Below, piece by piece: positions 37,401 through 52,230 of a stretch of DNA of 53,068 bases. A program made the position numbers and the translations under genes. The notes below the pieces were generated by a model. The model made no database searches. It worked only from the letters and a program-made list of their open reading frames with translations, and was not told where the DNA came from. Position 1 is the stretch's first letter. Each line of letters begins with the position of its first letter. Source of the DNA: Elusimicrobiota bacterium (GTDB taxonomy: Bacteria; Elusimicrobiota; Elusimicrobia; FEN-1173); assembly GCA_016788905.1 (NCBI GenBank), contig JAEURZ010000020.1, forward strand, positions 1-53,068, given 5' to 3'.

Positions 37401-40299
37401 AATCAATTTGACACTCAGAAATAATCGTATTTAAACTCACCACATGATCAGGCACTTTGGGAACCGGAACAGTGTCCGTTGCTTGTTGGGAGGATGCCAC
37501 AGGCTGGGTTTTCGTATTATCTTCAGTAAAATCACCCTTCGCAATGGGAGCGGCAGGAGATTTATTCTGTGACCACAAGAGAAATGGATCTTTCACATTT
37601 AGCCGAAGAAGATTTACAAAAACCCTGTATTCGCCATTTGCTTTGTTTGCCAAGGTGCGAATAGAACCACTAATTTCTTCAGCTGGGACTCCTCTTTCAA
37701 ATCCCGATTGTATAAGTCGGTTCGTTGTATCCCACATCACATCGTAATCACATTGAGAGTCGTTCTCGAAATAATCGAATACGTCATTTAAACTTGAGAT
37801 GATTTCTTTTTGAGTGGCCATAGCCGGAACAGGGAACATCAAGTTTCCACCCCGATGGGTATTGTAGGCGAGACCCAATGAACCCAACAGAGAAACAATG
37901 ATCATGAGAACGGTATTCCACATTGGACTGTTTGATATGAATCCAAGCGCAAACGAAAACATTGCCGTTGATGCGAACCCGAACAACACAAACCCAATCG
38001 CTACATAAAAGAAATACACCGCCGCGACCCGCCATTTGGATTGTTCCTTTGGGGTCTCCTTCAGCAAATTGATAAACAGATTCCCATGGTAAAGCAGAAA
38101 AACAGGAAGGGTTATTGCCAAAGGAGTGAGGGACGATAGGAAAAGAGACAGGGGCCCCATCGTAGGATCGTTTATCCACCCCAGCAGAATTTGTGTGAGG
38201 GCGGGCCCAAGAAAGAACAATTCCTTAAATATTTGGCGTGGATTGATTCGTTCGGCCCTTGTAAATTGACGTTCAAGGAAGCGGGTGATGGCTGACCAAC
38301 GACCGTATTCTATTCCTATCGATTCGGTAACGCTCTGAATGCCAGGACTTCCCTTTTTAACGGTAAACTCAAATACCATTCCCTTGAATTTTATTTTCGC
38401 TCGAATTGTATCTTGAACTACTTTCAAGACCGACAGGCTCCCAACACCGCCCAGTGTGGAGTAAATCGCATCGACATCGACCCTACCCATTTGTCCCAAG
38501 AGGAAAACCCCCATCAAGGCCACGAGCGCTGGGGCAAGAGTGCTGCGGAAATGTGTCGCAAAGGGAGAAGAAGCGAGAAAGAGTTTTTCCCCTTGGAACA
38601 GTTTATCCAGCGGGGTTTTCTCTTGGGTGAATACGCTTAGATACGCTGAGCCCTGGGCGGTGTCGACCTTATCGATTTTGGGAACGTAGGAAATAACGGT
38701 CGCGCCTCGATCTGTCAACTTTTTTCCAATGCCTTCGGCGTGGAATCCACCAGTGACCAAAAGCGCAACGGAATGTGAATCAAATTTAGATTGAAGATCC
38801 ATCCCCGCCAAAAGGTTTTTGGCCATGGCCGTGTCTCGCGCTTCGGCTTCATGGTAAAAGGCTTCAAAAGAGGCGAGCGAAGGATCTTTATTTGTTAAAA
38901 GGCTTTCATATTCTTTCCACTCCAGCGGTGTTAAACCGAAATCTACCAGCTTTGAGGTAAGCCAGTCTTGCCGGGATTGGGCGACCAGCGCTTTCTCTTT
39001 CAGGGTGTTGGCCAGGGCGTCATAAGCGGATTTTTCCAAAGCCGAGATTTCGTTTAGTAACTGTTCCGCGTCGATCCCGCCACAAAGCAAGACATACTGA
39101 ACGTATTCGTCCATGGCGGGGTAATCCGACAGGCGGATCTCTTTTTTTCGGCATGTTTCTTTTAAATGAGAGTAGAAGTCGCCATATCGGAGTTCCCCTG
39201 TTCGGTAGGCCAGGCTTTTGGCCATTAGTTCCTTGATTTCTTGGGTGTTCAGGGTTCGGGTTAGTTTTTCGATTAACATTGATCTTTCGGCTTCGACCTG
39301 TTTAAAGTCAAGCGTGCGTTCGGTTTTTAGGGCGTGGAGAAAGGTCTCGACAATTCCAACGTCTTTGGTTTTGAGTTTTGGCCTTCTCGGTGACATTGGG
39401 AGCGCGGGCGTCTCGCCCGCAGATGGCGGGCGAGACGCCCGCGCTCCAGAAACCAAAACCTCGACATAGTCGCCCAGGGAAACTTTGTCGTTTCGGTATC
39501 CATTCACTGTTTGATCGAGGGCCAACAGAGTGGGAGAGAACACGGCTTTCTTTTGTTCTTCTAGTTCCCCCCTCCGCTTATTTATCGCCAAACGAGTTTT
39601 TTTTAATTCCGGGGCGGAATCTTTGTAAGCTTGGACGTTCGCGGCGTAATGGACAGGGTCATCGATGCCCAGAATTCGGGGGAGTTTCCCCTGAGCCGTC
39701 ATGGCCGCGTGGATGGGGCCGGAAATCTTGTTTTCCCTCAACAAATAGTCCGCCGTCAATTCAACGGCTTTCCTGTTTGGGAAATCCACGAAGGGTTGGA
39801 GGGCGATGTCCTCGGTGGATCCCTCCAGGGCCACCATACCCACCTTTCCGGACTTCAATAAATCCGCCACAGTCTCCCGGATATTCTTCTGGGCTTCGTC
39901 GTTCATATGAACGTCTTGAATGTGGATCACCACCGGTCCCCAGGGACCGGCGTTCTTCCCGAGGGAAACCTTGCGCACGCTTCCGTGGGCGGAAGAGAGT
40001 GCGTCCAAAAGGTCAGCGTGACCCGTTAAAAACGTGTTGGGAACTGATCGAAAAACCGAGGGGGTGAGCGAAGACCGATGGATTTCAGGCGAGGGAAACT
40101 GGGCGGCCAAAGACGTCGGGCCCTGCACTGATTGAGGAAGGGAAGCCAGAAGTGTAGTCGACTCACGCTGGGTGACCCGCCGTCGTTCGGACCAAAAATT
40201 CTTTTCAGGCTGATAGGCAAACAGGCTCTGGGTGGCCAGCAGGGCTCCAGAAAGCACAAAACCCGTTATTTTCTTGACATTGAGCGCGGGAAGTTTCAC
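28462..40299 (-). CDS. Giant secreted/membrane multidomain protein (TIKI/ChaN-like, HTH repeats, SNF2 helicase, DUF488)
   Basis: A predicted 3,945-residue protein whose function I do not know. Residues 1-28 are a signal peptide (ending SLFA). About 89-544 is a TIKI/ChaN/EreA-superfamily-like domain: IQDVHMND at 127-134, ALEG at 157, RDTAMAKNLL at 488 and VTGGFHAEGI at 515. Several membrane helices lie at about 584-814. Three tandem HTH-like repeats and one further HTH fall in 1682-1982. An SNF2/SF2 helicase follows at about 2144-2614, with GDGTGLGKT at 2166-2174, VVDESQ at about 2268, SATAYG, NMKAGGVGLDLT and DRQLDGRMVRV. DUF488 is at about 3391-3524, ending in the CHR triad. More TM helices lie at 3591-3694 and a C-terminal domain to 3945. 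I chose GTG 40299 because a TATAAT box lies seven bases before it and the signal peptide begins there. Confidence 0.75.
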   Translation of the reverse strand: MKLPALNVKKITGFVLSGALLATQSLFAYQPEKNFWSERRRVTQRESTTLLASLPQSVQGPTSLAAQFPSPEIHRSSLTPSVFRSVPNTFLTGHADLLDALSSAHGSVRKVSLGKNAGPWGPVVIHIQDVHMNDEAQKNIRETVADLLKSGKVGMVALEGSTEDIALQPFVDFPNRKAVELTADYLLRENKISGPIHAAMTAQGKLPRILGIDDPVHYAANVQAYKDSAPELKKTRLAINKRRGELEEQKKAVFSPTLLALDQTVNGYRNDKVSLGDYVEVLVSGARASRPPSAGETPALPMSPRRPKLKTKDVGIVETFLHALKTERTLDFKQVEAERSMLIEKLTRTLNTQEIKELMAKSLAYRTGELRYGDFYSHLKETCRKKEIRLSDYPAMDEYVQYVLLCGGIDAEQLLNEISALEKSAYDALANTLKEKALVAQSRQDWLTSKLVDFGLTPLEWKEYESLLTNKDPSLASFEAFYHEAEARDTAMAKNLLAGMDLQSKFDSHSVALLVTGGFHAEGIGKKLTDRGATVISYVPKIDKVDTAQGSAYLSVFTQEKTPLDKLFQGEKLFLASSPFATHFRSTLAPALVALMGVFLLGQMGRVDVDAIYSTLGGVGSLSVLKVVQDTIRAKIKFKGMVFEFTVKKGSPGIQSVTESIGIEYGRWSAITRFLERQFTRAERINPRQIFKELFFLGPALTQILLGWINDPTMGPLSLFLSSLTPLAITLPVFLLYHGNLFINLLKETPKEQSKWRVAAVYFFYVAIGFVLFGFASTAMFSFALGFISNSPMWNTVLMIIVSLLGSLGLAYNTHRGGNLMFPVPAMATQKEIISSLNDVFDYFENDSQCDYDVMWDTTNRLIQSGFERGVPAEEISGSIRTLANKANGEYRVFVNLLRLNVKDPFLLWSQNKSPAAPIAKGDFTEDNTKTQPVASSQQATDTVPVPKVPDHVVSLNTIISECQIDSNKYVRSRDPRKMKVIEAIDGDKTRDVGHVRLESGQKIKLFRISSGGPTLDAWGMAPEDREPFKACFLLFPPPNSNESAFHHEDFERAYRDGFLIRGNHHITAKEAFFMIGLFLKKTKQEIKNSLTESGVLDRSHIISIGDFSLEVFPRVKWDYTIGQYHRVDSTLIGHILEEILVDIPSLSAEETDLNKGVSEDLLLQIPLAHRMPDMNSPRQITVGDEKLYLRLGAQGLVWAIKKKPIAERAEKVGGRETKKKTWKFHYSIATALEKMGILTDADLARQVLSDWKGLKSKLQRIGVWKTGVVKEWVEAYDYKHYWVKRGNGIRSIQIPDLPLSLPAKALLKGVFKTGDSTTLGDILHCGNLPQLLGLNQGKVFDSLNATKEIFGFLKHVREFEQNTYSSDPLFSEINDAIDLFLKTQANPNNYENLLISVRSLLSKESRAPKLAESYVNLFIKKEADFEDGETNDGEIKNLATPGNPLSKFVPMPITGLGKKVRTFDFASPVMTKLFLMNIHANSDLFDWSPRRDALKDALSRHPGVTEEMIQTVEDWFEKGGPDRVWVSPKHHLWDTPISELPLSKESLKVLFRVRGMTNASTLQDLKDLGSPLHGYLKGALNQEFVTVDVHTEIEEFYRVIFHLYGNLGIRQAVEGYIVGDQSVKDDDKLRKKVIEFVTNSRSNRRAEDGDDRWIRLFRREILEENARFNLSRQRDSYPNLVVREGILERLRESDWNIEKVADEFGITVSEFLESVKSNDPDPSVSDVIGFLKAHSGDVPGMVRLFFRANQEFDFFDVLKGLIINAPILRDCVVSRLKTSGTVAQAATDWGVEISWMRRLVEVVGVESFPAFADMQEYLAMHDGNVAEAQRFFFGGDNRAEAYFFRYIEKRDDFKIGLRDFVLNKLRTSGTKQRMATDWKVGTQWVRSMMALTGIEKFPTGEDYRRYLEANDWNLEACKKFHMPSESFKEFVDKLIADQGVPQFLNEKIRELSGASSSRNALAERLGIGVPSLSYLLSRLDLTELITNSVKKSPAQDLFEEFKDAVEVCGNDTQSLLDLLLVLNGEAIPLAQVKKYVRDFTELHLGDVARRGPGGLGNRDQRMLEFFFKKASLINKKSVEERGMLVSVFLKVLFIELSDEKKGSLLMAQLEEARSKGVFFEELYLAARDLTDRALQYRAPHLLTHLLPHQRVGAFFLSHHARAYLGDGTGLGKTIEALAAMDPQWKVFVAAPASLLDSWQKEIFKHFTREALKGIKIVVLSGDQAKRQRLIDSVRDEKGVIVIGSIQSLRGKTVEDLSGLSHGLDLFVVDESQMGANYRGEGDQRNAQQAEALQKIESSRKWYLSATAYGSNHQQLFAMLHALSRGTPEEDKYRDYNEFCRIHPRNDPLGYRLLRAAMRRVSLSREPDDVMRRFDPPAVHPLAEQGARLPHLREVPYTSMGGYFLNEEQIDLLLRLVKDFGRFAAWYNERVPEEQRLTEEQINPFTKLRFAFDLMINPRRVGGGSDSPMWAELDRVVKSYASSGKKGILFTLNKSVLEAALNRYGRYGVARIDGSITGYAHDQNGIVVKGYFDQSGELVVDALDPRARAVDAKTYQRHLFQTDPKVRIIVVNMKAGGVGLDLTAAEYAVQVQLPDTYTLDRQLDGRMVRVDLRRPHEAVDKIRMVARFPEGWAERYRGTEYEPLAAELSASGTPLEIQLERNEAGERVFRLVMTDLATPEEQDTLMGKSLMSFFPGFQQDKSMERYYSSLRSPAVRKTLELFLPLYERAQSQDQMGQVLELAELYFKTGQIKGLEDLLRTLGSTEESNVGFLSALQRIPNKFARARWMERITYFLGILYTVGKGESIATEMEDFSFLFEEAPYVVFPLYCVLGHANATTEREILASFLSGMDRDMEPKQKGLFYQSLCLWLLHVNGPDAQTTFFSLLRKYLNLFVGPGLDVPHRMDRFEKMLRLLDFPETKEVLLSEEVRADADSFDGGLVRATERAAQRIFNLSQSESVTLCRSFPAVLTALQMAKSLNGNPKYAKEALQLQEVLSQVAKGRFSQWRNRQEGERLNGGNVEFLKANEEFWEIFTKEERVSINGFEIGVAEHQAHLNKVVGQIQELMTQDDYAAIAETVGDWAPKEFLSLSTVDNPGKALSPGRAELAAVLGQVRLGRHLNAFDRSVLARAGVDSHGSSEELTDKIQERLRAYSSLEDWLFLSHWLSRLTASPPSPAQLRNLRLIVSKIIGRATTQGASKVAEHLELFLGTLNQLNERSRYERLSIEFTTNPALLLQRGMLQPRLVDCFNAYANPEQFSTLVDDLGSRNKILAIVRDQNGHILARSVVKVKRMEDGTPVLFPERPLYLGNHDFENEILEALRKSKAKPLAKFKTLLAKEASSLKGGQKIFDTGGYGEREYFEPLFGVRSRDKGAIYHFGETMPSDAVRVPFLGGIGYQGQSVELFLELLKEQGITLVIDVRENAYSQRPDFSSSLRERLGNAGIGYEHQKSLGAPKSIRQLHRHGENDEEFMRQYAGYLDAHRHVVDELVRRIEGQRVALLCYEQDPSQCHRTAIIAALRGRISTDEDIKDLRPPSSTQMDLFGNHHEGKAASTWGLKIAEWLGAKVGGAVGRERFGAAYRQFAAFIEWSVGAKVASWGLVGTLVFSGAPWGWVLAPVLGVIYGVLFFGSHFISKSMAPVTRVNVGVVEAMTMGLIYGVLIGVTPFLLGAVPLWGVPDFGVQAAGVLWGLAGGLHSIFDSEKPREAGERVAWTLVGRMSRVQGVFEVLMPGTEIDHTEQVVGKGSLSVDPMTEILSRLKTDTEFRAGFLGVVQSAVDQQKLSGTPLILLSSLAKAATGQPVNYVHVMGSSASVELNSIEMLLERSGVSEDAGVSVGLVVPAGQSREIQARLSVLAAKGVQLFPVNLSRSGWSADVLDTLDHDMSAWLSKTSATVATVGAGVSIHRRDIASLDENSKLRMALESAVTLGDVVQTFLHYLRVLASNA
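29728..30129 (-). other. DUF488 domain within the giant protein
   Basis: About 134 residues with the family's hallmark order: GGIGYQGQSVELFLELL, then VIDVRENAYSQRP, SLGAPKSIRQL and the C-terminal LLCYEQDPSQCHRTAI. DUF488 is usually a small stand-alone cytoplasmic protein of unknown role. Confidence 0.85.
32458..33870 (-). other. SNF2-type helicase domain within the giant protein
   Basis: A two-lobed SF2 ATPase of about 470 residues. Motif I is GDGTGLGKT, motif II is DESQ instead of the usual DEAH, motif III is SATAYG, motif V is NMKAGGVGLDLT and motif VI is QLDGRMVRV. It is preceded by the Q-motif-like LLPHQRVGAFF. The catalytic Lys, Asp, Glu and Arg positions look intact, so ATPase activity is plausible. 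Confidence 0.82.
39399..39447. repeat. Perfect palindromic element inserted in frame in the giant gene
   Basis: A 22-base arm (39399-39420) and its exact complement (39426-39447) flank the loop AGATG. Both arms are G/C-rich and centred on GGGCGTCTCGCCCGC. Read in the gene's frame the element encodes ARASRPPSAGETPAL, a peptide unlike its surroundings, in a loop of the TIKI/ChaN-like domain. It resembles the mobile palindromes that invade coding regions in other bacteria (RPE-like). Confidence 0.85.
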
Positions 40300-40305
40300 G
40301 GTCCG

Positions 40306-40311
40306 ATTATA
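40306..40311 (-). promoter_or_regulatory. Extended -10 promoter of the giant gene, giving a leaderless mRNA
   Basis: A perfect TATAAT on the minus strand, preceded by TGT (the TGn extended -10 signature) and with no recognisable -35. The usual start point, six to seven bases downstream, falls on or next to the GTG at 40299. No ribosome-binding site could fit, so the message would be leaderless. Confidence 0.6.
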
Positions 40312-40372
40312 ACACGCCCTCCCAGAAGATCGCCTTAAGATCATGTAACAATTTTGTAAACTTGGCGCCCCG

Positions 40373-40390
40373 CACAGCTGTCCGGGGAAA
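40373..40390 (+). repeat. Left terminal inverted repeat of the IS
   Basis: CACAGCTGTCCGGGGAAA. It matches the complement of the right end except at position 5 (G versus C). Confidence 0.88.
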
Positions 40391-40399
40391 GTTTGAAAA

Positions 40400-41572
40400 T
40401 TAGGTGGCGATAAACGAAAAATGAAGTTGGGGGTCAAGTTGCTTCAACCGCTTAAGCCTGGGCTCATTTAAATTAAGTAGATCCATCAGGGAGACCCGGT
40501 CCAATAGGGTCTCCTTAATCATCCGATGCAAATAGAACAGAGAACGGCCGTATTTGGTTTGGTATTTGATATACGCCAGCAGTAAGTAATAGATCATCGC
40601 CACCCATATTTGGCTTAGAACCGCGTTTTCCGTCGTGCCAAGGAACGACTTGATCTTTAGGTTCTGCTTGATCCACTTGAAAAACGCCTCGATCTGCCAC
40701 CGCGCCTTATAGATCGCAGCGATCGTCGTGGCCGCAAAGGTCGTGTTGTTGGTCAGAAACTCCAACACCCGATCGTTCTCCTGATCGTAATACCGGATCA
40801 GCCTTAACGGGCAATCCTTCCCCGCGAAATCCCCACTGGCTCGCTCAATCGTCGCGTCCATCAAAACACCGCGGTTTTTCAAGCATTCCTGCTGTCCGGT
40901 TACCCGGTAGGTCAGGTTCTTTTTCACCCGCGTCACGAACGTACATCCCATCTCATGTAACCGTCGAAAATATCCGAAGTCCACATAGGCTCGATCGAAA
41001 CAATAGATGCTGTCCGGTTTAATGGGAATATCTTTCTTCGCCACAGACACATCGTTCTCCCGCCCCTCCGTGATCACCATTAAGCTCGGGATATGCCCCG
41101 CGTAATCCAGCTGATAATGGAGTTTCAGGCCCCCCTTCCCCGTTCGATAACGAGCCCAGGGGAAAACGCTCAGGCACAGGCTGATCACCGTCGAGTCAAG
41201 GCTATACAGCGGATTTTTAAACCGGAACTTGTGCTTCGGCGTCACTGACCGGCACCGCATCAACAGTTCCCCAAACACTCCCCGAAAAATCTCCCACTTT
41301 CGCCGCCCGTTCGCGTCCGCCAGCGTCGTCCGCCTCACAGGACCCGCCAATCCCACGTGATAGGTTTTACTCTCTTGGGTTTCAAGTCCCTGCTCGATGT
41401 CGCGCAGGCTGTCTTTCCCGCTCGCTTGGGCATACAGCATCACCGTCAGCTGGTTCCACGTGGTGAATGTTTTCGAATATCGGTCCGCTTGGTGGGCTTT
41501 GACCAGTCGGTCGAATTGATGTCGGGGAATATGAAGCAACAGCTGGTTTAAAATCGTGTTATAATGGGCCAA
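40400..41572 (-). CDS. IS4-family DDE transposase
   Basis: A 390-residue transposase with an N-terminal DUF4372-type domain (residues about 1-70) and a DDE catalytic core. The first Asp is in YSLDSTVISLCLS, the second in YCFDRAYVDFGYF. The Y-x2-R-x3-E-x6-K motif of the IS4 family is in YKARWQIEAFFKWIK. The start is TTG at 41572, with GGAGG six bases upstream. No frameshift or internal stop is present, so it may be active. The start region is paired in an inverted repeat with a sequence further upstream in the element, which would block translation of read-through transcripts. Confidence 0.93.
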   Translation of the reverse strand: MAHYNTILNQLLLHIPRHQFDRLVKAHQADRYSKTFTTWNQLTVMLYAQASGKDSLRDIEQGLETQESKTYHVGLAGPVRRTTLADANGRRKWEIFRGVFGELLMRCRSVTPKHKFRFKNPLYSLDSTVISLCLSVFPWARYRTGKGGLKLHYQLDYAGHIPSLMVITEGRENDVSVAKKDIPIKPDSIYCFDRAYVDFGYFRRLHEMGCTFVTRVKKNLTYRVTGQQECLKNRGVLMDATIERASGDFAGKDCPLRLIRYYDQENDRVLEFLTNNTTFAATTIAAIYKARWQIEAFFKWIKQNLKIKSFLGTTENAVLSQIWVAMIYYLLLAYIKYQTKYGRSLFYLHRMIKETLLDRVSLMDLLNLNEPRLKRLKQLDPQLHFSFIAT

Positions 41573-41722: not shown

Positions 41723-43144
41723 TTACAGTGACAAACTCGGCTTTCCTCTTTCATTCAATGCCTCATAAAACCTTTTTATCACAGGATCGCATCGAATGTC
41801 GGATTTATTCATTGGCTTTGCCAATGAAATTCCACTCATCGCCTTGCATCGGCTCAACGCCACATACACCTGCCCATAATCGAAGGCGCCCGATCCCAAG
41901 TCGATCCGGACCTTGTCGAGCGTCTTCCCCTGGCTTTTGTGAATCGTCACCGCCCACGCCAACATCAGGGGCAGTTGCGTGTACTTCCCCATGGAAACGG
42001 GCTTGATCGCCTCATCTTTGAGCTCGTATTTAAACGTTTCCCATTCCACCGGCCCCACTTCGTAAGCCCGGCCTGTTCCGTCCAAAATCTCAACGGTGGC
42101 CGATTCGTCTTTTAATTCGACCACTTTTCCCACCGTTCCATTCACCCAGCGTTTGGTTTCATCGTTTTTCGTAAACATCACCTGCGCGCCCACTTTCAGC
42201 GTCAAATTCATTGGGGAGGGGAGTTTCGTTTCTTCCACCGCAAATTTTCCCGTCACGCTGCCCATAAACGTTTTTTCTTCCGACTCAATCCCTTTCAATT
42301 CCTCGTCGTTAATGGCGTCCGCCACCCGGTTTGTCGCACACAGAGTAATCACGCCCTCCCGCGTTTCCCCGTTTTCACTCAAGCCATTGATTTGGTTCAA
42401 CGCCTCCTCGTCCACATCCCCTACCCGGACACGGTTAAGTATGCGGATAAACTCTTCCTCAGATTGCCGATAAAGTTTTGTCAATTCTTTCGTTACCATA
42501 GATCCACTCTTCAAAACCTTCGCGCTGAAAAAATACGGGCTCTGGTACGCCATTTGTGCCAAAACGTCCCTTTCAATGGACTGCACCACCGGCGGCAACT
42601 GAAACAGATCCCCAACCATCACCACCTGCACCCCGCCAAACGGCTCCTGCACTTCCCGATTCAATTTCAAAAATTGATCCATCGCGTCCACCACATCGGC
42701 CCGCACCATGGAGATCTCATCAATCACCAAAAGTTTAAGTTTTCGATACAGCCGCCGATCCCTCACCAAATGGATATCGTCATCCGTGGCAATCCGCGGC
42801 GGCAACCGAAAAAAGGAATGGATCGTCGCTCCCCCCACATTCAAGGCCGCCACTCCCGTTGGGGCCACCACCGCCATATTTGCGGGGAAGCAATCGCGTA
42901 GGTATTGGATAAATGTGGATTTGCCAGTCCCCGCCTTTCCCGTCACAAACACCAAGGGGGCTTTGGCGTCCAACCACCGCATAATTTCCGTGTATTCGGG
43001 GGTTACTTCAATGGAGGGGCTTCGCGGTTTCGTCGGTGCCTTCACCGGTCGGTTTTGTCGCCGAAGGGCCTTCTGTTCCAAATCCTTTACTTCCTGAGGC
43101 TCAACTCCGAGCGCCTTTTTAAACCCCTCCCAAATTCCGGCCAT
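41723..43144 (-). CDS. Pif1/RecD2-like SF1B DNA helicase
   Basis: A 473-residue 5'-to-3' type helicase. Walker A is GKAGTGKST at residues 69-77, motif II is DEIS at 142-145, motif III is GDLFQLPPV at 178-186, and the UvrD_C_2-like end carries TIHKSQGKTLDKV and YVALSRCK. A SH3-like insertion (about 330-395) precedes the last motifs, as in bacterial Pif1 proteins. The first 45 residues are a basic linker with no known domain. It starts three bases after the stop of the Type ISP gene, the last of four co-transcribed genes. In that setting it may process DNA ends made by the nucleases, but it could also be a passenger. Confidence 0.85.
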   Translation of the reverse strand: MAGIWEGFKKALGVEPQEVKDLEQKALRRQNRPVKAPTKPRSPSIEVTPEYTEIMRWLDAKAPLVFVTGKAGTGKSTFIQYLRDCFPANMAVVAPTGVAALNVGGATIHSFFRLPPRIATDDDIHLVRDRRLYRKLKLLVIDEISMVRADVVDAMDQFLKLNREVQEPFGGVQVVMVGDLFQLPPVVQSIERDVLAQMAYQSPYFFSAKVLKSGSMVTKELTKLYRQSEEEFIRILNRVRVGDVDEEALNQINGLSENGETREGVITLCATNRVADAINDEELKGIESEEKTFMGSVTGKFAVEETKLPSPMNLTLKVGAQVMFTKNDETKRWVNGTVGKVVELKDESATVEILDGTGRAYEVGPVEWETFKYELKDEAIKPVSMGKYTQLPLMLAWAVTIHKSQGKTLDKVRIDLGSGAFDYGQVYVALSRCKAMSGISLAKPMNKSDIRCDPVIKRFYEALNERGKPSLSL

Positions 43145-43147
43145 GGC

Positions 43148-46100
43148 TCAAGTTCGCTCATCCAGCGGGGGGAGGGCTTTCACAATTTTCATCGTTTCCA
43201 CGCTTACCGTCACAACCCGTTTCAAAAGGTTGAGTATATATTGCGGATCCTCGTGCTCCCTCGCCCAATCGTTGGGGTCGTTCACAATCCCGCTCTCCGG
43301 GTCCTGGCTCACCTGGTAGCGCTCCATCACCCATTCAATCGCGGACTTGCCGTTGACCACATACTCATAGGCTTCCAAGGGAATGCCGGTTATGGTGATA
43401 TGGCTGTTGAATTGAATAACCGTTTTGTCCTCACCACTGGCATTTTTGCCAAACCGCATTTTTTGAACCTCGTAGAGACGAGCCGAATCCAGCGCCAATT
43501 CTTTGTTGGCCACCTTCACCGGGTATGGCTCTATGTTCTCATACCCCAAATGCAATTCCGCCAACTTGCGTCCCGCTTTGCTGAAAGCCCAAAAGTCCTT
43601 CGCGAACGGAATCCGTGGTAAAGTTTTTGCCAAATCGGCTTTAAATCGTTTTTTGTACTCCGGGGAGTGCAGAAGGCCATAAACAAAGTAAAACACATCT
43701 TCTTTTTGAACCTTATTGTCCTCGTATTTCAAACGGAATTGCTTCAGGGCGAAGTCACTAACATTTATCGTCTTTTCCTCTTGTCCAAAATTCAATTCCC
43801 CCGACTTCTCTCTCTTGGTGTGGTAAAAATAGAGTGGGAAACATTGCGACTTCGAAATGATTTCAAGATCCGGGATGATGTCCACAATCAGCGCTGAGAA
43901 ATCTTTTGTTGCACCTACCCCCGTCACACAAATCGCGAAATTCCTTTTCTCAGCGTCCGGGAAAAACATCGGCATTTTACCAGGCCGATGAATGAGGTCG
44001 GAGGCGGAATAGATTTGTTGCTTAGTGAATGGCCTGTATGCAGCAGGGCGAACCGCCGAATTATTAAATTTAATGTGCACTCCCCGCTGACAGTCACCCA
44101 ACAATGAGGATGACCACTTAATTTTCTTCGAGTCGTTAGTTATTACGTCGAATATCTTTATCCGTGGATTATGTTTTTGACTTTTATTCAATACCTCCAC
44201 TTGCTGGTTATACACGTCAATCATATGTGAAATGTTTTTTGCGACACGGTTTTGTGAGTAATTATAATTCCACGCGTCCCGGTTTGTTTGAGTTCCCAGT
44301 GAATATGACACAAATATTGATTCCACATCTGAGCTTCCTTTGTCCACCTTAGATCCCAATGGAATAAACTTTTCAAACTTTTCATCTCGCTTGTTTATCC
44401 AATCGTGGTTTTTGTCTGGATCAATCTCTGCCCATCCAATATTTCTGATATCCCCAAATTGCTGAATGATTAACAATTTCTCTTCTCGTGATAAATAATC
44501 GCCGATGTCGTGATAAAAGATTTTACCAGGCGATTTGTGCTGTTTGTTTTTTATAAAGAGCGTTATTGCAATTTGCGCGCGGCTTCCAGAACCAAATATC
44601 TTTCCACCCTCTTTCCTTGAAAGCTCGCCAGATGTTCTTTGATTGCCTCGCAGGTTGAAGCAGTAGATGCGACTGAATTCGTCGTGTATGGTTTTTCTTA
44701 ACCCACTCATTGTTTTGGTATCAATAAACCCCGCATTACTAACAAAACAAATTATGCCCTTATCTTTTATTCGATCACTCGCCCATCTTATTGCTCGAAT
44801 ATATGAGTCATACAAGCTATTAATGTTTGCTGATTGCGCGTTGGCCGCGTAGGTATTGGCTATTCGCTGGTCCAACCCTGGATATTTGAGATTCTGGTTG
44901 TTATCGTTTTGGCTGGTTTGCCCTGCGGAATATGGCGGGTTCCCCACAATGACGCGAATGTCCCGGCGGTTTTGTTTGTCCGCCCGTTCGCTGTTCACCT
45001 GGAAATTGGGGTCTTCAAACGCCCCCTTCCCTTCCGACAGCTGGAACGTGTCGGTCAGTACAATCCCCTCAAACGGCTCGTATTCCGCCTTTGCCCGCCC
45101 ATGATAGGCTTCTTCAATGTTTATGGCCGCGATGTAATAAGCCAACAGAATAATTTCGTTGGCGTGCAACTCCTCCCGGTATTTCCGCACCAAATCCTTT
45201 TCGTTGATAAGCCCACTTTGCAAAAGCCGAACTATAAACGTCCCCGTCCCGGTAAACGGGTCAAGCACATGAACATCTTTGTCCGACAACCCCACCCCAA
45301 ATTCTCCGCGGAGCGCCGCGTCCGCGCTTTTCAAAATAAAATCGACCACTTCCACCGGTGTGTAAACAATTCCCAACCTTTCTGCCATTCGGGGGAACGC
45401 CGTTTTGAAAAACTTGTCATAAAGCTCAATGATGATCTTTTGCTTCCCCTCTACGTTGTCGATCCCCCGCACGCGTTCTTTCACACTTTCGTAAAACTTT
45501 TCCAATTTCTCTGTTTCTTTCTCTAGGCTTTGCCCCTCTAAAAGGTCCAGCATTTTCTGCATGGTCTTTGAAACCGGGTTCCGTTTCGTAAACTCATATC
45601 CCTCAAAAAGCGCGTCAAACACGGGCTTTGTGATGATGTGCTGGGACAACATTTCGATGGCGTCGTTTTCACTAATGCTCGGGTTTAGGGTTTTCCGCAA
45701 TCCATTTAAAAAGGTTTCAAACTTTTTCCGGTGGACAGAGTTCGCCGTTTCCACCAAGGCCTTAATGCGCGTGGTGTTCCGGTCCGCAATTTTGGCCACA
45801 TCCTGCGCCCAACTTTCCCAATACCGCCGGTTCCCGCACTTCACCACAATCTTTGCAAAGATGGCATCCCGCCATTCTTCCAGGTGGGGAAAGTTAAAAA
45901 CAGTCTGGACAGCACTACCCGACCCCTTTTCCCCTTCCTTATTTTCTCCCACCCCAATGATTTGTATTTGCCCCGGCCGCTGTTTGTTAATGTCAATCTG
46001 GTTGATCATCGCGTTAAAGCGGTCATCGTGCGCCCGCAACGCTTGCAACACCTGCCATACCACCTTGTATTTTTGATTGTTCGCCAAGGCCTCTTCTGGG

Positions 46101-47947
46101 CTCACATCCGCCGGTACACCAACCGGCAGGATGATGTACCCGTATTGCTTCCCTTCCACCTTACGCATCACCCGCCCCACGGACTGCACAACATCCACAA
46201 CGGAGTTCCTGGGGTTCAAAAACATCACCGCGTCCAACGCCGGAACGTTTACGCCTTCCGACAAACACCGCGCATTGCTCAAAATCCGGCAAACATTCCC
46301 ATTCTTTGTCGTGTCTTCTTTCAGCCATTGCAACCGCTTGTTTCGGATCAACGCGTTGTGCGTCCCATCCACGTGATCCACTTCGCACCTCAAATATTTC
46401 CCTTCCTCCGCCTCTTCAGAACCCGCCGCCCTCTCCCCCACGTAATTCCTCACAATCCCTTCAAAAAGCTCCGTTATCTTTTTCGACTCCTTAATCGACC
46501 GATTAAACGCCACCGCACGGCGCATCGGCGTTTGGTCCATCACCCCCGCCCCATCCCCGTCCACCGGAAGGATCTTCTTCTGTAACCCGTTATAACAGCC
46601 GACAATTTTAATCACATCATCCAAATTCAATTCTTTATTTCTGTCCGCAATCTGGCTCTGGAACGCCTTCGACACATGCTTTTCATCCACCGCCAACACC
46701 ATCACCTTGTAATCCGACAACAACCCTCGCCGCACCGCTTCCGAAAAGTCGAGCCGATACAGCTCTTCCCCATATACCGATGGATCATCCATGGAATAAA
46801 GGTCAATATCCGCATCTTTGGCTTTCCCTTTTGAGACGTCGTCATAAATTCGTGGCGTCGCCGTCATGTACAGCCGCTTTTTCGCCTTAATGAAATCCGG
46901 CTTGTGTACCAACACAAAAGCCGACGCCCCCGCCTTGTCGTATTCCGTTCGTTCTATCCCCGTCGTTCGATGGGCTTCGTCGCAAATCACCAAATCAAAA
47001 ACCGGTGTCCCAAACTCTTGTGACTCCTGAACCACCGCAATGGACTGGTAGGTGGAAAAAATAACCGTGACGTTTTTCTTCCGTATTTTCCGCAGGGCTT
47101 CGATCTGATGCCCCAACAGTTTCGGATTCGTGTGCGCCGGGAACGCAAGGTCGTGGGTGGAAATGTCCTCTTCCTCCCCCGATTGCCCCGCCTTGGGGTC
47201 GGAACATACCGCAAAGAAACTAAACTTAGCCTCCGCCTCAGCCGCCCATTCCGCCACGGACTGCGAAATAAGCGAGATCGAAGGGACCAAAAACAGCACG
47301 CACCCCCCGGCGGGCGCCATCGTTTCCGCAATCCGAAGTGAGGTAAAGGTTTTCCCGGTCCCGCAGGCCATGATCAGTTTCCCACGGTCGGCCGCTTTTA
47401 ACCCGGCAATCACCTTATCATGGGCTTCTTTTTGATGGGGTCGTAGATGTTTTTTGTCTTTGAATTTTATTTCCGTTGGCCGGTCCGGCCGCACCGCCGC
47501 CCAATCCACCGGGCTCTCGTCCAAATCCTGAACCCGCAACCGGCTTACCGGTATTTGCTGATTCTTGCACGCGTCCTCGGCGTGTTTGCTCCAATTATCC
47601 GTCGTAGAAATAATAAGCCGCTTTTTAAAAGGGTCCTTCCCCGACGCCGTGAAAAATGAGTCGATGTCCGCCTTTTGAAGGGTGTGTGCCGGATCAAAAA
47701 ATTTACACTGAATCGCCCAAACATCCCCACTCCCCCGCTCCTGGGCCACAATATCGATCCCAACATCCGGCTTATTCCCTCGCTCCGGCCACTCCCCCCA
47801 CAACCACACCGCAGAAAACAAATCCGAATAGACCGGATCCTTTTTCAAAAACCCCACCATTAATCGCTCAAACCGATCCCCCAGGTCCCGATTATTTCGG
47901 GCCTCTTCGCGAAATTGCTGGAGAATATCATTGATAGATTTGGTCAT
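43148..47947 (-). CDS. Type ISP single-chain restriction-modification enzyme
   Basis: A 1,599-residue protein of the LlaGI/LlaBIII class, which methylates one strand of its site, translocates on DNA and cuts when two enzymes converge. An Mrr-like nuclease lies at about 20-150 (catalytic D65, then Q80-C-K82). An SF2 translocase follows at about 170-620, with ACGTGKT at 194-200, DEAH at 323-326, TATPR and QSVGRVMR at 588-595. A helical coupler leads to a gamma-type N6-adenine methylase with DPFTGTGTF at 896-904 and NPPY at 1003-1006. The C-terminal target-recognition region spans about 1130-1599. The size fits the class (about 1,570). ATG 47947 overlaps the upstream stop as ATGA; an open extension of 23 residues upstream is not needed. 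The target-recognition part is visibly more A/T-rich than the rest. Confidence 0.9.
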   Translation of the reverse strand: MTKSINDILQQFREEARNNRDLGDRFERLMVGFLKKDPVYSDLFSAVWLWGEWPERGNKPDVGIDIVAQERGSGDVWAIQCKFFDPAHTLQKADIDSFFTASGKDPFKKRLIISTTDNWSKHAEDACKNQQIPVSRLRVQDLDESPVDWAAVRPDRPTEIKFKDKKHLRPHQKEAHDKVIAGLKAADRGKLIMACGTGKTFTSLRIAETMAPAGGCVLFLVPSISLISQSVAEWAAEAEAKFSFFAVCSDPKAGQSGEEEDISTHDLAFPAHTNPKLLGHQIEALRKIRKKNVTVIFSTYQSIAVVQESQEFGTPVFDLVICDEAHRTTGIERTEYDKAGASAFVLVHKPDFIKAKKRLYMTATPRIYDDVSKGKAKDADIDLYSMDDPSVYGEELYRLDFSEAVRRGLLSDYKVMVLAVDEKHVSKAFQSQIADRNKELNLDDVIKIVGCYNGLQKKILPVDGDGAGVMDQTPMRRAVAFNRSIKESKKITELFEGIVRNYVGERAAGSEEAEEGKYLRCEVDHVDGTHNALIRNKRLQWLKEDTTKNGNVCRILSNARCLSEGVNVPALDAVMFLNPRNSVVDVVQSVGRVMRKVEGKQYGYIILPVGVPADVSPEEALANNQKYKVVWQVLQALRAHDDRFNAMINQIDINKQRPGQIQIIGVGENKEGEKGSGSAVQTVFNFPHLEEWRDAIFAKIVVKCGNRRYWESWAQDVAKIADRNTTRIKALVETANSVHRKKFETFLNGLRKTLNPSISENDAIEMLSQHIITKPVFDALFEGYEFTKRNPVSKTMQKMLDLLEGQSLEKETEKLEKFYESVKERVRGIDNVEGKQKIIIELYDKFFKTAFPRMAERLGIVYTPVEVVDFILKSADAALRGEFGVGLSDKDVHVLDPFTGTGTFIVRLLQSGLINEKDLVRKYREELHANEIILLAYYIAAINIEEAYHGRAKAEYEPFEGIVLTDTFQLSEGKGAFEDPNFQVNSERADKQNRRDIRVIVGNPPYSAGQTSQNDNNQNLKYPGLDQRIANTYAANAQSANINSLYDSYIRAIRWASDRIKDKGIICFVSNAGFIDTKTMSGLRKTIHDEFSRIYCFNLRGNQRTSGELSRKEGGKIFGSGSRAQIAITLFIKNKQHKSPGKIFYHDIGDYLSREEKLLIIQQFGDIRNIGWAEIDPDKNHDWINKRDEKFEKFIPLGSKVDKGSSDVESIFVSYSLGTQTNRDAWNYNYSQNRVAKNISHMIDVYNQQVEVLNKSQKHNPRIKIFDVITNDSKKIKWSSSLLGDCQRGVHIKFNNSAVRPAAYRPFTKQQIYSASDLIHRPGKMPMFFPDAEKRNFAICVTGVGATKDFSALIVDIIPDLEIISKSQCFPLYFYHTKREKSGELNFGQEEKTINVSDFALKQFRLKYEDNKVQKEDVFYFVYGLLHSPEYKKRFKADLAKTLPRIPFAKDFWAFSKAGRKLAELHLGYENIEPYPVKVANKELALDSARLYEVQKMRFGKNASGEDKTVIQFNSHITITGIPLEAYEYVVNGKSAIEWVMERYQVSQDPESGIVNDPNDWAREHEDPQYILNLLKRVVTVSVETMKIVKALPPLDERT

Positions 47948-49575
47948 GAACAAGGTGGGGCAGACGAGGAAGGAATGGGATTCACCTGGTTGTTGATATA
48001 CGCACGATCCCAACATTGATTTATTGCGTTATATACCACGCTCATCTTTTTTTCAAATTCATCTTTGGTAATTTCCTTAGCAACTCTTTCGGCCCAAACC
48101 AACTTCCCGAGGCCTAGGTTCTTCCACCTATCAGGATAATATTCCTCCAATGCCTTAACAGGAAGCACATATATCTGTTTGTTCTTGTCCAGCCTCGGAT
48201 GCTCTGACCGAAAATTATTTAGGCGCCTCTTTTCAGTATCACCGTAAGGTTCGTCGATAAGAATTGTAAGTTTGTCCCGATAAATGGGAGTGTCAAGGGG
48301 TTTGAAAACTAGATTAATGGCGTCCATGCTTTGATGTGCCCGTTCGTCATTGCCATAGGCAGCGACAACTTGGATCGATGGTTTATCCCGATAAAAGCGT
48401 GAGATGAGGTTCTCAAGAAATAATTTGTCGCTTGGGCCTTCTACAATCAAGAAATTAGCTGGCAACAGCAAATCAGCAGGGCTGCCCCCCAACAATTGAA
48501 AAATCACGTCCTGCTTGGATTGCCCGGCAACCGGTATTATCTCGGTCTTCCCGCTACATTTCTTCACACGAAAAACGCTTTGCTTCTCATGTTCGTCTAC
48601 CATTAATACGGATGAGTGGGTGTTGATGAATACCTGATCGGAGGCTTGCGATAAATCGAATAAGGCTTTTTTAAGGTGTCGTTGTGCCCCTGGATGGAGG
48701 TGTAGTTCGGCTTCATCGATGAAGAATATGAAAGCCTTTCCTAAAGCATCATTTCGCCGATGATCTGCATGCGCCTTAATTATTGCCAGCATAAGGGCGC
48801 GTTGCATCCCGTCGCCCTTGTCTTCTGCGGCAGTCGGGACTCCATCGTTTAATCGAGTTGTGAAGTTTTCGAACAAATCCTCAATCGATGGCTCCCCAAC
48901 CTCAAATTGAACGTCCGAGCAGTCTGGGAATTGCTGTTGAAGATGGCATTTCACATCATCAGCCAATGCCGCCAGTTTTTTGCGAATGCCTGACTTCTCA
49001 GATTGAAAGACAGCTTCAAAGGAAGCTTTGAACTTTTTGTATTCCTCATCACCCTCAAGAATGCCGGTGAGGACTCCTCCAAGGATTTGCCCGATGGGGG
49101 TTTTGGAGGAGTAGCCCGAAACGTCTTTGAGATGTTTTGTGGCTTCGATAAATTCAAAACGCGGGATGCAATTGTTGAATGCCGGGTCAGTTCCCGTTGG
49201 TTGCTTTTTCCATTCATTCGTTTTTGGGTGGAATACGTAGCGGGCCTTGGGATCCCCGGTTGTTCGCCGAACACGCATGATGTCAGATGTTTCAACAATA
49301 GCTCGGAGCTTGGTCTGATTCTCGGCGTTACTTATCTGTTTGATTCCATCCTGAACACCAGAGAAAGTTAGTTCTACAACGATTTCACCGTTTGGAGAGA
49401 ATGTAGAGCGAATTTCATTTAGTTCTCCCTTGCCGCCATAAAACCATTCCAACGCCTTGAAAACATTGGTTTTGCCGTGGTTATTTTGTCCAACCAAAAC
49501 ATTAAAAGCCATAGGTTGGAAATCGACTTTCTCTATTGACCTGAAATTCTCAATGTGAATGTGGCTAATTCTCAT
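47944..49575 (-). CDS. OLD-like ATPase with TOPRIM nuclease domain
   Basis: A 543-residue ABC/SMC-type ATPase fused to a TOPRIM domain, the layout of OLD-family nucleases (P2 OLD, GajA of Gabija). Walker A is GQNNHGKT (29-36), a signature-like segment lies at about 252-262, Walker B is FFIDEAE (284-290) and the H-loop is NTHSS (318-322). The TOPRIM Glu is in LIVEGPSDK (376-384) and the acidic pair in LTILIDE (436-442). The C-terminal 100 residues are helical. It is translationally coupled on both sides (ATGA). The partner usual for Gabija, a UvrD-like GajB, is absent; a Pif1-like helicase is encoded two genes on. Sensing or cutting of phage DNA is a reasonable inference. Confidence 0.85.
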   Translation of the reverse strand: MRISHIHIENFRSIEKVDFQPMAFNVLVGQNNHGKTNVFKALEWFYGGKGELNEIRSTFSPNGEIVVELTFSGVQDGIKQISNAENQTKLRAIVETSDIMRVRRTTGDPKARYVFHPKTNEWKKQPTGTDPAFNNCIPRFEFIEATKHLKDVSGYSSKTPIGQILGGVLTGILEGDEEYKKFKASFEAVFQSEKSGIRKKLAALADDVKCHLQQQFPDCSDVQFEVGEPSIEDLFENFTTRLNDGVPTAAEDKGDGMQRALMLAIIKAHADHRRNDALGKAFIFFIDEAELHLHPGAQRHLKKALFDLSQASDQVFINTHSSVLMVDEHEKQSVFRVKKCSGKTEIIPVAGQSKQDVIFQLLGGSPADLLLPANFLIVEGPSDKLFLENLISRFYRDKPSIQVVAAYGNDERAHQSMDAINLVFKPLDTPIYRDKLTILIDEPYGDTEKRRLNNFRSEHPRLDKNKQIYVLPVKALEEYYPDRWKNLGLGKLVWAERVAKEITKDEFEKKMSVVYNAINQCWDRAYINNQVNPIPSSSAPPCS

Positions 49576-50852
49576 TCGTCTTCATCGCCTAATTCAGGTT
49601 CATGGGTTAACGCAGACAATTCAAGCCCCTCAATTTCCTGCAACGTCTTCCCCGCGATCCCCTGCAAATCGCCATACATGCCGACAGTCCCCTGCATAAC
49701 CCGTTCGATCTGCTCTTCGCGTTTGGCCCATTGTTTGGTGATTACTTTTTTTTCCACGTCCAGGTCGGTCTTCATGGACGTAAACGCCTCAACGATGCCC
49801 TCCACCCGTTGCCGGAATCGCGGCCCCGTAAGGTATTGATAGATTATCTGGGTTTTGGTTTGTTGTCCGTCGGAAACTTGGCGGGCGGTGTTGACCTCGA
49901 TTAGGATTTGGCGAAGCATGGCCGCCACGGGCAAAGCCACTCTTGGATGGGCAATCCAGACGCCCTCCACCTGATCAAAACTTTCCACCCCCTTCGGCAG
50001 GGCTTGGGAGATGAGGAGCGCTGCTTCGGCCTTGGCCGCCCGCTGATCCTCCCGAAGTTTCGGGAGCCAACCATCGGACCAATTCTTTGTCCTCTTTGAT
50101 TCCCACAAAATCGTTCCACACGCCTGCCCCGTCGGGCCAACAACTTTGTGAATGATGTCCCCGCCGAATTCACCTTTCGGCACCGCGTCAACGGTATCCC
50201 GAGGGAACTTGCTTCGAATCAACGCTTCAAGCTCCAACTCCAGAACTTCACCCTGAAGCTGTTGCGATCCTTGCTCGGCCCGTCGCTGGGCTTCTTCCAA
50301 CTGTTTCTTCATTGAAGCGATGGTCTGCTCCTTCTCCATCAGGCGGAGATTGAGGGACTCTTCGGTCTCTTTGCGGGCCTGTTCGCGCACGGAGGCCAAT
50401 CCCGCTTGAACTTTTTTTTCGACATTCAAATCCATCTCGCGCTTGGCGTCGTCAAGCTCGCGTTGCTTGCGCAACAAATCCGCCTGGGCCTTTTGAGCCT
50501 CAGCCAACTTGGCATCCCTCGTTTTCAAGACCTCTTGAAGGTCGTTTATTTCTTTGGCCTTCTGATCCAAATCCATCGCCAAAGTGAGACGGGCCTTGGC
50601 GGACTCCTCCGCCACGATCTTCGCCCGTTCGGTCTTGACCTTTGCCGCGACCTGTTCGTCCAAAGACGCCTTGGCCTTTGTGATGGCATTTTCTCGTTCC
50701 CGAAGCTCGGTCTCCCGCTTCGCGGTAGCAGAATCTTTTTCGGCTAAACGTTTCTCATAATCGAGGCGAATGGTCTCCACCAGCGGAGCGGCCAAAGACT
50801 CCGTCAGTTTGATTTCTTGCTTGCACTTTGGACATTCAATGGTCGGGTCCAT
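49572..50852 (-). CDS. DUF2130 coiled-coil protein with PD-(D/E)XK-like nuclease domain
   Basis: A 426-residue protein. CPKC near the N-terminus is half of a possible zinc ribbon. Residues about 25-205 are a long charged coiled coil. About 210-330 is the DUF2130 core: LELEALIRSKFPRDTVDAVPKGEFGGDIIH, then GTILWESKRTKNWSDGWLPKLREDQ, which supplies an Asp and E-S-K in the order of PD-(D/E)XK nucleases. A second coiled coil closes the protein. I placed the start at ATG 50852, eight bases after AGGAG; the GTG nine bases earlier abuts that site. It is the first gene of the operon and its stop overlaps the ATPase start. The biochemical role of DUF2130 is not established. Confidence 0.82.
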   Translation of the reverse strand: MDPTIECPKCKQEIKLTESLAAPLVETIRLDYEKRLAEKDSATAKRETELRERENAITKAKASLDEQVAAKVKTERAKIVAEESAKARLTLAMDLDQKAKEINDLQEVLKTRDAKLAEAQKAQADLLRKQRELDDAKREMDLNVEKKVQAGLASVREQARKETEESLNLRLMEKEQTIASMKKQLEEAQRRAEQGSQQLQGEVLELELEALIRSKFPRDTVDAVPKGEFGGDIIHKVVGPTGQACGTILWESKRTKNWSDGWLPKLREDQRAAKAEAALLISQALPKGVESFDQVEGVWIAHPRVALPVAAMLRQILIEVNTARQVSDGQQTKTQIIYQYLTGPRFRQRVEGIVEAFTSMKTDLDVEKKVITKQWAKREEQIERVMQGTVGMYGDLQGIAGKTLQEIEGLELSALTHEPELGDEDE

Positions 50853-50935
50853 TCCACCCACTCCTGTTGGCGTTAATGGCTCATGGTTTCGTATGGTCGA
50901 TGATCCTGGATGATAACAAATTGGGCTCTATAATT

Positions 50936-50963
50936 ATTTTAGGCCGATAGCTGTTTCTGTAAA
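50936..50963 (-). promoter_or_regulatory. Promoter of the four-gene defence operon
   Basis: On the minus strand TTTACA (50963-50958, five of six), a 16-base spacer and TAAAAT (50941-50936, five of six). The predicted start is about 75-80 bases before the DUF2130 ATG. I found no other promoter of this quality between here and the end of the Pif1-like gene. Confidence 0.65.
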
Positions 50964-50983
50964 CAATTAAAGGTAAATTGTTT
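50961..50983. promoter_or_regulatory. Operator-like palindrome at the defence promoter
   Basis: AAACAATT (50961-50968) and AATTGTTT (50976-50983) form a perfect eight-base inverted repeat with a seven-base centre. It overlaps the upstream edge of the -35 box, where a bound dimer could control access. No regulator gene is recognisable next to it. Confidence 0.5.
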
Positions 50984-51393: not shown

Positions 51394-52230
51394 CTAGTAG
51401 ACACGGGCATACCCCTTATCCAATAACTCTTGATTTAGCATCACCCCTTCACGGTAAATGTCGTCTTTGTCCATTGTTTCGTCCAGCGAATAGAAGATGT
51501 GGCCAAGGAAGCGGCCGTTGATGTCCACCTTGGTGGTGCGGAGCATCACGAAGGGGAGGCGAGACAGTTGGGTTCGGACGTATTCGGCGGCTTCGCGGCC
51601 CTCCTCCGTGGTGATCTCCGGGCAGTCGATTCCCGCCAGGCGGATCCGCTCCTTCTTTTTGATCTCGAAGCCGCAATCCACATCGAGGACCAAAGTATCA
51701 CCATCAACGACGTCCAATACTATCGCCTTGAAAACGTATGTGGCACCGGCGGGGCGGGGGAGTTGTTTCGCCTTTTTCCCCTTCTTTCCCTCCCCATATC
51801 TGTCACCCTGAACTGCCCTCAGTAACTGGTCCCGCGTCCAATCGTTTTTCTCCGCCTGGACCGTGTAGTATTCCCGCTCTTTGGGATCTTTGATCGTTAG
51901 TAGGACCCTGTAGTGCGCCCAGGCAAGGACTTCTGTCTCTGGGACGGTCTTGTATGTCTCGTGGAACTGAACACACCGATAGAGGGTGGTCATATCGGTT
52001 TTGATGTCCTTGGCCAGCTGTTGCATGACCGACCTTGCATAGCCCGCATTTTCCGTCAGTTGTTCCTGCGCGATCCTTCCCCCCATTTCCCAATAGGTTC
52101 GAAGAGCCTCCTTCGCAATAGCTCGTCTCGCTCTGGTTTTCCCTGTTTCCCAGAGGGTGCGAAGGTCATTGATGAGGCGCTCATAGGCGTTGGCGTCAAT
52201 GGATTTACCGACGACTAGGACGTTTTTCAT
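51394..52230 (-). CDS. DUF1016_N (YhcG-type) fused to staphylococcal nuclease domain
   Basis: A 278-residue protein. Residues about 12-145 match the N-terminal part of DUF1016/YhcG proteins: the YWEMGGRIAQEQ segment, YARSVMQQLAKDI and the YRVLLTIKDPKEREYYTVQAEKNDWTRDQL helix region. That part usually precedes a PD-(D/E)XK nuclease. Here that nuclease is replaced, after a Lys-rich linker (148-158), by a complete SNase domain. D178 of DGDT, R197, D202 and E205 of IRLAGIDCPE, and R240 of DINGRFLG match the five catalytic positions of staphylococcal nuclease. There is no signal peptide, so it should act inside the cell. It stands alone between two related non-coding blocks. Confidence 0.87.
   Translation of the reverse strand: MKNVLVVGKSIDANAYERLINDLRTLWETGKTRARRAIAKEALRTYWEMGGRIAQEQLTENAGYARSVMQQLAKDIKTDMTTLYRCVQFHETYKTVPETEVLAWAHYRVLLTIKDPKEREYYTVQAEKNDWTRDQLLRAVQGDRYGEGKKGKKAKQLPRPAGATYVFKAIVLDVVDGDTLVLDVDCGFEIKKKERIRLAGIDCPEITTEEGREAAEYVRTQLSRLPFVMLRTTKVDINGRFLGHIFYSLDETMDKDDIYREGVMLNQELLDKGYARVY

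What the first reader, a model, noticed from the sequence alone, without database searches (positions are those of the whole stretch)
41723..50983. Four-gene coupled operon: DUF2130 + OLD-like ATPase/TOPRIM + Type ISP enzyme + Pif1-like helicase
The first three genes are linked by ATGA overlaps and the fourth follows after three bases, behind one promoter with an operator-like palindrome. Type ISP enzymes normally work alone, and OLD-like proteins usually pair with a UvrD helicase (Gabija). Here a PD-(D/E)XK-like coiled-coil protein, a TOPRIM ATPase and an SF1 helicase are made in step with a complete restriction-modification enzyme. Overlapping starts imply required stoichiometry, not just island co-location. 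Hypothesis: a composite defence system in which the Type ISP enzyme marks self and makes breaks while the other three detect or process the invader's ends.
Basis: partly seen in the sequence, partly recalled or inferred. Interest (0 to 1): 0.82.

Follow-up and report, generated by a model that had tools for sequence, protein, structure and literature searches.

The report
Restriction enzyme operon with swappable helpers
A complete single-protein restriction-modification enzyme in an uncultured bacterium is translated in step with two probable DNA-processing helper genes that elsewhere are attached to quite different restriction systems, so this looks like an add-on helper pair on a known kind of anti-virus enzyme rather than a fixed new four-part system.

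Summary
On the minus strand, DUF2130 (50852-49572), a P2-Old-like ATPase/TOPRIM gene (49575-47944) and a complete Type ISP enzyme (47947-43148) are joined by two ATGA overlaps, and a Pif1-like helicase (43144-41723) follows after 3 nt.

The fixed four-gene system is not supported. None of 76 Type ISP relatives across GTDB, nor five in the window's own phylum, has DUF2130, a close relative of this OLD protein, or Pif1 nearby. The Pif1 groups with the same-family homologue (63% identical, support 0.999), and homologues in other genomes sit among housekeeping genes. It is therefore most likely the resident chromosomal helicase. ATGA overlaps occur at 4 of 30 co-directional pairs in this window and do not prove stoichiometry.

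What does recur is DUF2130 tightly coupled to an ABC/OLD-type ATPase: 6 of 30 coupled neighbours against 6 of 364 background genes (p about 8e-5). Five loci besides the window also contain a Type I or Type III-like restriction system, or Gabija plus a methyltransferase. The closest parallel, L209, is HsdR-Mrr-HsdM-HsdS-OLD-DUF2130.

Best reading: a Type ISP restriction system carrying a portable OLD/DUF2130 accessory pair. This is a new variant of a known kind; its function is untested.

The parts
49572..50852 (-). DUF2130 protein, 426 aa: long coiled coils flanking a PD-(D/E)XK-like core with conserved D232 and E251-S-K253
   Evidence: Pfam PF09903 E=5.6e-74; alignments A3 and A4 show D232, E251 and K253 invariant; AlphaFold2 model mean pLDDT 77, its best PDB neighbours mostly PD-(D/E)XK nucleases at weak E
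47944..49575 (-). OLD-family protein, 543 aa: ABC ATPase plus C-terminal TOPRIM with an incomplete DxD motif; P2-Old-like
   Evidence: Pfam AAA_15/AAA_21; PADLOC Old E=1.6e-63; 27% identical to phage P2 Old over residues 1-422; phrog_4747 E=1.1e-84; model matches GajA (low-confidence model)
43148..47947 (-). Type ISP restriction-modification enzyme, 1599 aa: Mrr nuclease, SF2 helicase, coupler, N6-adenine methyltransferase, target recognition domain
   Evidence: Pfam domains; full-length homology to LlaBIII and LlaGI structures; PADLOC REase_MTase_IIG 2209 bits
41723..43144 (-). Pif1-like SF1B helicase, 473 aa; probably the resident chromosomal Pif1, read through from the operon
   Evidence: Pfam PIF1 E=3.9e-32; 44 of 98 relatives have it, same-family homologue 63% identical, housekeeping neighbours elsewhere; tree groups it with the same family, support 0.999
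50936..50983 (-). promoter-like site (TTTACA-16-TAAAAT, 50963-50936) with overlapping 8-bp inverted repeat AAACAATT-7-AATTGTTT (50983-50961)
   Evidence: number of promoter-like sites no higher than in shuffles; inverted repeat, chance 0.02-0.05

Best explanation
This is a Type ISP restriction-modification locus in an Omnitrophota-like genome that carries two horizontally acquired accessory genes, DUF2130 and an OLD-family ATPase/TOPRIM protein, translationally coupled upstream, with the host's own Pif1-like helicase gene just downstream. Likely mechanism: the ISP enzyme alone does self/non-self recognition. It methylates one strand of an asymmetric target, translocates from unmethylated sites and shreds DNA where two enzymes collide. 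This follows from the family; the domains are shown here, the activity is not. The OLD ATPase and the DUF2130 PD-(D/E)XK protein form a separable second layer that probably binds or processes DNA ends or intermediates, either those left by restriction or those of phage replication. They backstop restriction but are not required subunits of the ISP enzyme (inferred). The same pair is plugged into other RM types elsewhere.
For: ISP protein complete and collinear with LlaBIII/LlaGI, which need no partner (PMC4666363). 0 of 76 GTDB relatives and 0 of 5 phylum orthologues carry the partners; only 5 of 47 ISP-bearing genomes hold any DUF2130, none within the fetched ISP loci. The pair recurs with another RM core: L209 HsdR-Mrr-HsdM-HsdS-OLD(44%)-DUF2130(39%), gaps of about -4 to 17 nt from the Mrr gene on. 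DUF2130 coupled to ABC/OLD-type ATPases in 6 of 30 tight neighbours against 6 of 364, p=8e-5; RM systems of other kinds in L130, L133, L170 and L144. OLD relatives in other RM loci: L123 (TdeIII + two MTases, ATGA overlap), L124 (ResIII/TnsA-like). Mosaic origin: nearest DUF2130 from Planctomycetota (70%), nearest OLD from Bacteroidota (54%), GC3 0.64, 0.47 and 0.59 for DUF2130, OLD and ISP, and no match in the three same-family genomes. Pif1 follows host family.
Against: Two consecutive 4-nt overlaps show the three genes are now co-translated, which is compatible with a tighter functional link. Most DUF2130 genes and about half of the OLD subfamily are solitary, so the accessory reading rests on a minority of loci. 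Only one locus other than the window holds this OLD subfamily together with DUF2130. Pif1 is missing from three sampled same-family genomes, so 'resident' is not certain. No activity has been measured.
Confidence: 0.7

Rival explanations
1. An integrated composite defence system: the ISP enzyme marks self and makes breaks, and OLD, DUF2130 and Pif1 are obligate partners that sense or process the broken invader DNA.
For: ATGA overlaps and a 3 nt gap; all four proteins act on DNA; in L209 the same OLD-DUF2130 pair sits directly behind a complete Type I RM system.
Against: The four-gene and three-gene orders were found nowhere else among 81 ISP loci and about 70 DUF2130 loci; Pif1 looks resident; ATGA overlaps are ordinary in this window; the TOPRIM DxD is incomplete.
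Confidence: 0.12
2. Plain defence-island neighbours: unrelated defence genes were stacked by insertion and happen to be transcribed together, with no functional link at all, including between OLD and DUF2130.
For: Partners of ISP, of OLD and of DUF2130 all vary between loci; GC content differs between genes; an IS4 transposase gene lies 150 nt downstream.
Against: DUF2130-ABC/OLD coupling exceeds background and recurs with the same OLD subfamily in L209 in the reverse order; two successive overlaps are unlikely as raw insertion junctions.
Confidence: 0.15
3. The OLD protein is a Class 1 OLD (P2-Old-like) acting by itself in abortive infection when host recombination is blocked; the RM enzyme and DUF2130 are independent.
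For: 27% identity to P2 Old; solitary relatives in viral contigs, two of them prophage-like (L211, L212), and in Bacteroidota (L218-L220).
Against: In several RM loci the OLD is directly coupled to RM genes (L123, L124, L209), and the canonical metal-A aspartate is lost in the subfamily, so P2-Old-like nuclease killing is not assured.
Confidence: 0.25

Closest known systems
Type ISP restriction-modification enzymes (LlaGI, LlaBIII)
   Same: Same five-domain single polypeptide, full-length alignment to 4XQK (residues 4-1595) and to 5FFJ; intact GTGKT, DEAH, DPFTGTGTF and NPPY motifs.
   Different: Known enzymes act without accessory subunits; here the gene is translationally coupled to OLD and DUF2130.
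Class 1 OLD nucleases (P2 Old, Thermus scotoductus OLD)
   Same: ABC ATPase plus TOPRIM, similar size (543 against 528 aa for TsOLD), 27% identity to P2 Old, solitary relatives.
   Different: Not solitary here; the second aspartate of DxD (TsOLD D433) is P or another residue across the subfamily; the TsOLD S478 equivalent is A475 here.
Gabija (Class 2 OLD GajA + UvrD-like GajB)
   Same: OLD-type ATPase/TOPRIM in one operon with an SF1 helicase gene; DUF2130 directly precedes GajA-GajB in Aliarcobacter (L144).
   Different: Helicase is Pif1/RecD-like, not UvrD-like, separated from OLD by the ISP gene, and probably resident; GajA match is weak.
R-linked ORFs (Rlo) of Type I RM loci
   Same: Accessory defence genes embedded in RM operons and varying between strains (the Rlo naming is described in PMC4619093).
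   Different: The core here is Type ISP, and DUF2130 is not named among R-linked ORFs in the papers I could search.

Membership tests
Type ISP restriction-modification enzyme | One polypeptide with Mrr-like nuclease, SF2 helicase, coupler, N6 methyltransferase and target recognition domain | tested here: met
   Pfam Mrr_cat_2, ResIII, ISP_coupler, N6_Mtase, Type_ISP_C; end-to-end alignment with LlaBIII
Type ISP restriction-modification enzyme | Asymmetric-site methylation, ATP-driven translocation and collision-dependent cleavage | not testable with these tools
   Needs biochemistry or methylome data
OLD family, Class 1 | ABC ATPase fused to C-terminal TOPRIM | tested here: met
   AAA_15/AAA_21, PADLOC Old over residues 1-402, P2 Old hit, TOPRIM-like order of strands and helices at 374-479 in the model
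OLD family, Class 1 | Conserved two-metal TOPRIM residues (TsOLD E377, D381, D431, D433, S478, E480; PMC7049728) | tested here: inconclusive
   E379, D383, D441 and E477 present; second D of DxD absent in all relatives aligned, S478 equivalent is A475; correspondence by sequence motif only
OLD family, Class 1 | Single gene, not beside other defence genes | tested here: not met
   Coupled to DUF2130 and ISP, although several relatives are solitary
[quoted passage not shown]
   Neighbours are DUF2130 and ISP; the helicase matches PIF1/RecD2 models
DUF2130 / PD-(D/E)XK superfamily | PF09903 match; conserved D...ExK on the nuclease core fold | tested here: met
   PF09903, D232/E251/K253 invariant, beta-rich core with ranked PDB neighbours mostly PD-(D/E)XK nucleases but weak E-values
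Composite DUF2130-OLD-ISP-Pif1 system | Ordered set conserved in other genomes | tested here: not met
   0 of 76 GTDB ISP relatives, 0 of 5 phylum orthologues, none of about 70 DUF2130 loci

The most novel reading that the evidence does not exclude
DUF2130 plus an OLD/ABC-type ATPase is an undescribed, portable antiviral module that attaches itself to restriction-modification systems of any type (ISP, Type I, Type III-like) and acts on the DNA that the RM system cuts or fails to stop.
Probability: 0.3. Interest if true: 0.65.

Novelty: new variant of a known kind. Interest (0 to 1): 0.4.

Why it matters
DUF2130 is a widespread family with almost no literature (3 papers in the library, none on defence). 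If it is the nuclease half of a helper pair that RM systems of several types recruit, that gives the family a testable function and suggests that 'stand-alone' restriction enzymes are often backed by a coupled second layer. It also shows that translational overlap in one genome is not evidence for a conserved multi-protein machine.

Tried and rejected
1) Ordered four-gene system: searched from the ISP side, the DUF2130 side and the OLD side; not found elsewhere. 2) Pif1 as a specific partner: rejected as most likely resident. 3) Gabija-like reading: rejected, no UvrD-type helicase and weak GajA similarity. 4) Operator/promoter claim: only marginal statistics. 5) Plasmid relatives of OLD at 22-28% identity were not followed as members of the subfamily. 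6) OLD structure model too poor (pLDDT 55, five sequences) for an active-site argument. 7) Profile search for the OLD subfamily in 150 Pseudomonadota genomes found nothing at E<=1e-50. 8) One regex for ABC ATPases was too narrow and missed the window's own OLD; redone with a wider one.

Full report
Observation. DUF2130 (50852-49572), OLD-like (49575-47944) and Type ISP (47947-43148) are joined by ATGA overlaps, and Pif1 (43144-41723) follows after GCC. The automatically called ISP ORF starts 69 nt earlier, but homology begins at the overlapping ATG. The promoter-like site at 50963-50936 is not above the shuffle expectation. The inverted repeat that overlaps it has a chance probability of 0.02-0.05.

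The Type ISP enzyme. It has all five domains of the family and aligns end to end with LlaBIII (4XQK) and, without its nuclease domain, with LlaGI (5FFJ). Those enzymes are single-chain proteins that recognise, methylate, translocate and shred DNA after collision (PMC4666363). Nothing suggests that this one needs a subunit. A scan of 84,980 species genomes returned 76 relatives; 34 have at least 3 kb on both sides. None carries DUF2130, a close relative of this OLD protein, or Pif1 nearby. Five orthologues within the phylum (three at 60-62%, two at about 53% in partial or split genes) also lack them. One is followed by a membrane protein and a DprA-family protein gene, one by an unknown 436-aa protein, and the others have no coupled partner. 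Only 5 of 47 ISP-bearing genomes contain any DUF2130, and none of those DUF2130 loci shares sequence with the fetched ISP locus. A few ISP relatives have an ATPase-like gene downstream (L022, L048, L069; by eye). L055 has an OLD-like gene (27%) 38 nt downstream. These are not members of the window's OLD subfamily. Because the scan uses exact peptide patterns, rare exceptions could be missed.

Pif1. Of 98 relatives searched, 44 have a homologue, almost always one per genome. The nearest is in the same family (63%; the next is 48%). Its neighbours there are an arsC/phosphatase-like gene and, by eye, hldE- and kdsA-like genes; in other families the gene sits beside alaS-, def- and fmt-like genes. 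The tree groups the window's Pif1 with its family (0.999). DUF2130, OLD and ISP have no match in the three same-family genomes sampled for all of them. The simplest reading is that the three genes arrived upstream of a resident Pif1. Absence of Pif1 from three sampled family members leaves some doubt.

OLD. It is P2-Old-like (27% over residues 1-422; PADLOC Old E=1.6e-63; phrog_4747). Members of the subfamily (43-54% identity) occur: in RM loci (L123 with a TdeIII-type endonuclease and two methyltransferases; L124 with a ResIII/TnsA-like enzyme and a TIR gene; L125 with a reverse transcriptase and a methyltransferase; L209 with HsdRMS); alone in viral contigs (L211, L212); in a viral contig with other genes (L210); and alone in Bacteroidota (L218-L220). 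The TOPRIM keeps E379, D441 and E477, but the second aspartate of DxD is missing in every member aligned and the TsOLD S478 equivalent is alanine here (residues from PMC7049728). Nuclease activity is therefore uncertain.

DUF2130. Alignments keep D232 and E251-S-K253. An AlphaFold2 model (pLDDT 77) has a core whose best PDB neighbours are mostly PD-(D/E)XK enzymes (Holliday junction resolvase, McrBC, SPARDA, BstEII, MspJI, Ecl18kI), but only at E of 0.01 or weaker. Most DUF2130 genes are solitary, and in several viral contigs the gene lies beside a phage-type DNA polymerase. Among 30 tightly coupled neighbours in about 70 loci (window excluded), 6 are ABC/OLD-type ATPases, against 6 of 364 background genes (odds ratio 15, p=8e-5). 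The ATPase test is a Walker-motif regex, and the loci were found by similarity to the window protein, so the figure is indicative. Five loci also hold an RM system: L209 (Type I plus Mrr), L130 (N6_N4 methyltransferase plus ResIII-type enzyme), L133 (Type III-like), L170 (Mod/Res-like, identified by similarity of sequence starts to L133 and by motif, not by Pfam) and L144 (Gabija, methyltransferase, DEAD helicase).

Conclusion. The finding is a real, compact operon. The evidence favours a known enzyme (Type ISP) carrying a portable helper pair (OLD + DUF2130), with a resident Pif1 downstream, over a fixed four-component system. Shown: gene order, domains, recurrence of the DUF2130-ATPase coupling, absence of the four-gene set in the samples. 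Inferred: that the pair works on DNA ends or intermediates as a second layer. Not shown: any activity.

Noticed in passing
window 51394-52230 (-): Gene fusing a DUF1016 N-terminal domain (PADLOC PDC-S02-like) to a staphylococcal nuclease domain, 532 nt upstream of the operon.
   Followed up: no
window 28462-40437 (-): A 3991-aa open reading frame with an SNF2-type helicase region and a DUF488 domain.
   Followed up: partly
L206 (own genome, contig C30, about 1927-2726): A degraded second fragment of a Type ISP gene (six stops in frame) in the same genome, suggesting turnover of such enzymes.
   Followed up: no
L213, L214, L215, L236: DUF2130 gene directly upstream of a phage-type DNA polymerase gene in viral contigs, hinting at a role in DNA replication or processing.
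   Followed up: partly
L201 8103-9493: A Type ISP orthologue followed closely (2 and 23 nt) by a membrane protein gene and a DprA-family gene.
   Followed up: no
L123 112-4271: RE_TdeIII endonuclease, D12 methyltransferase, N6_N4 methyltransferase and OLD in one run of genes.
   Followed up: partly
window 40400-41572 (-): IS4-family transposase gene 150 nt downstream of the operon.
   Followed up: no
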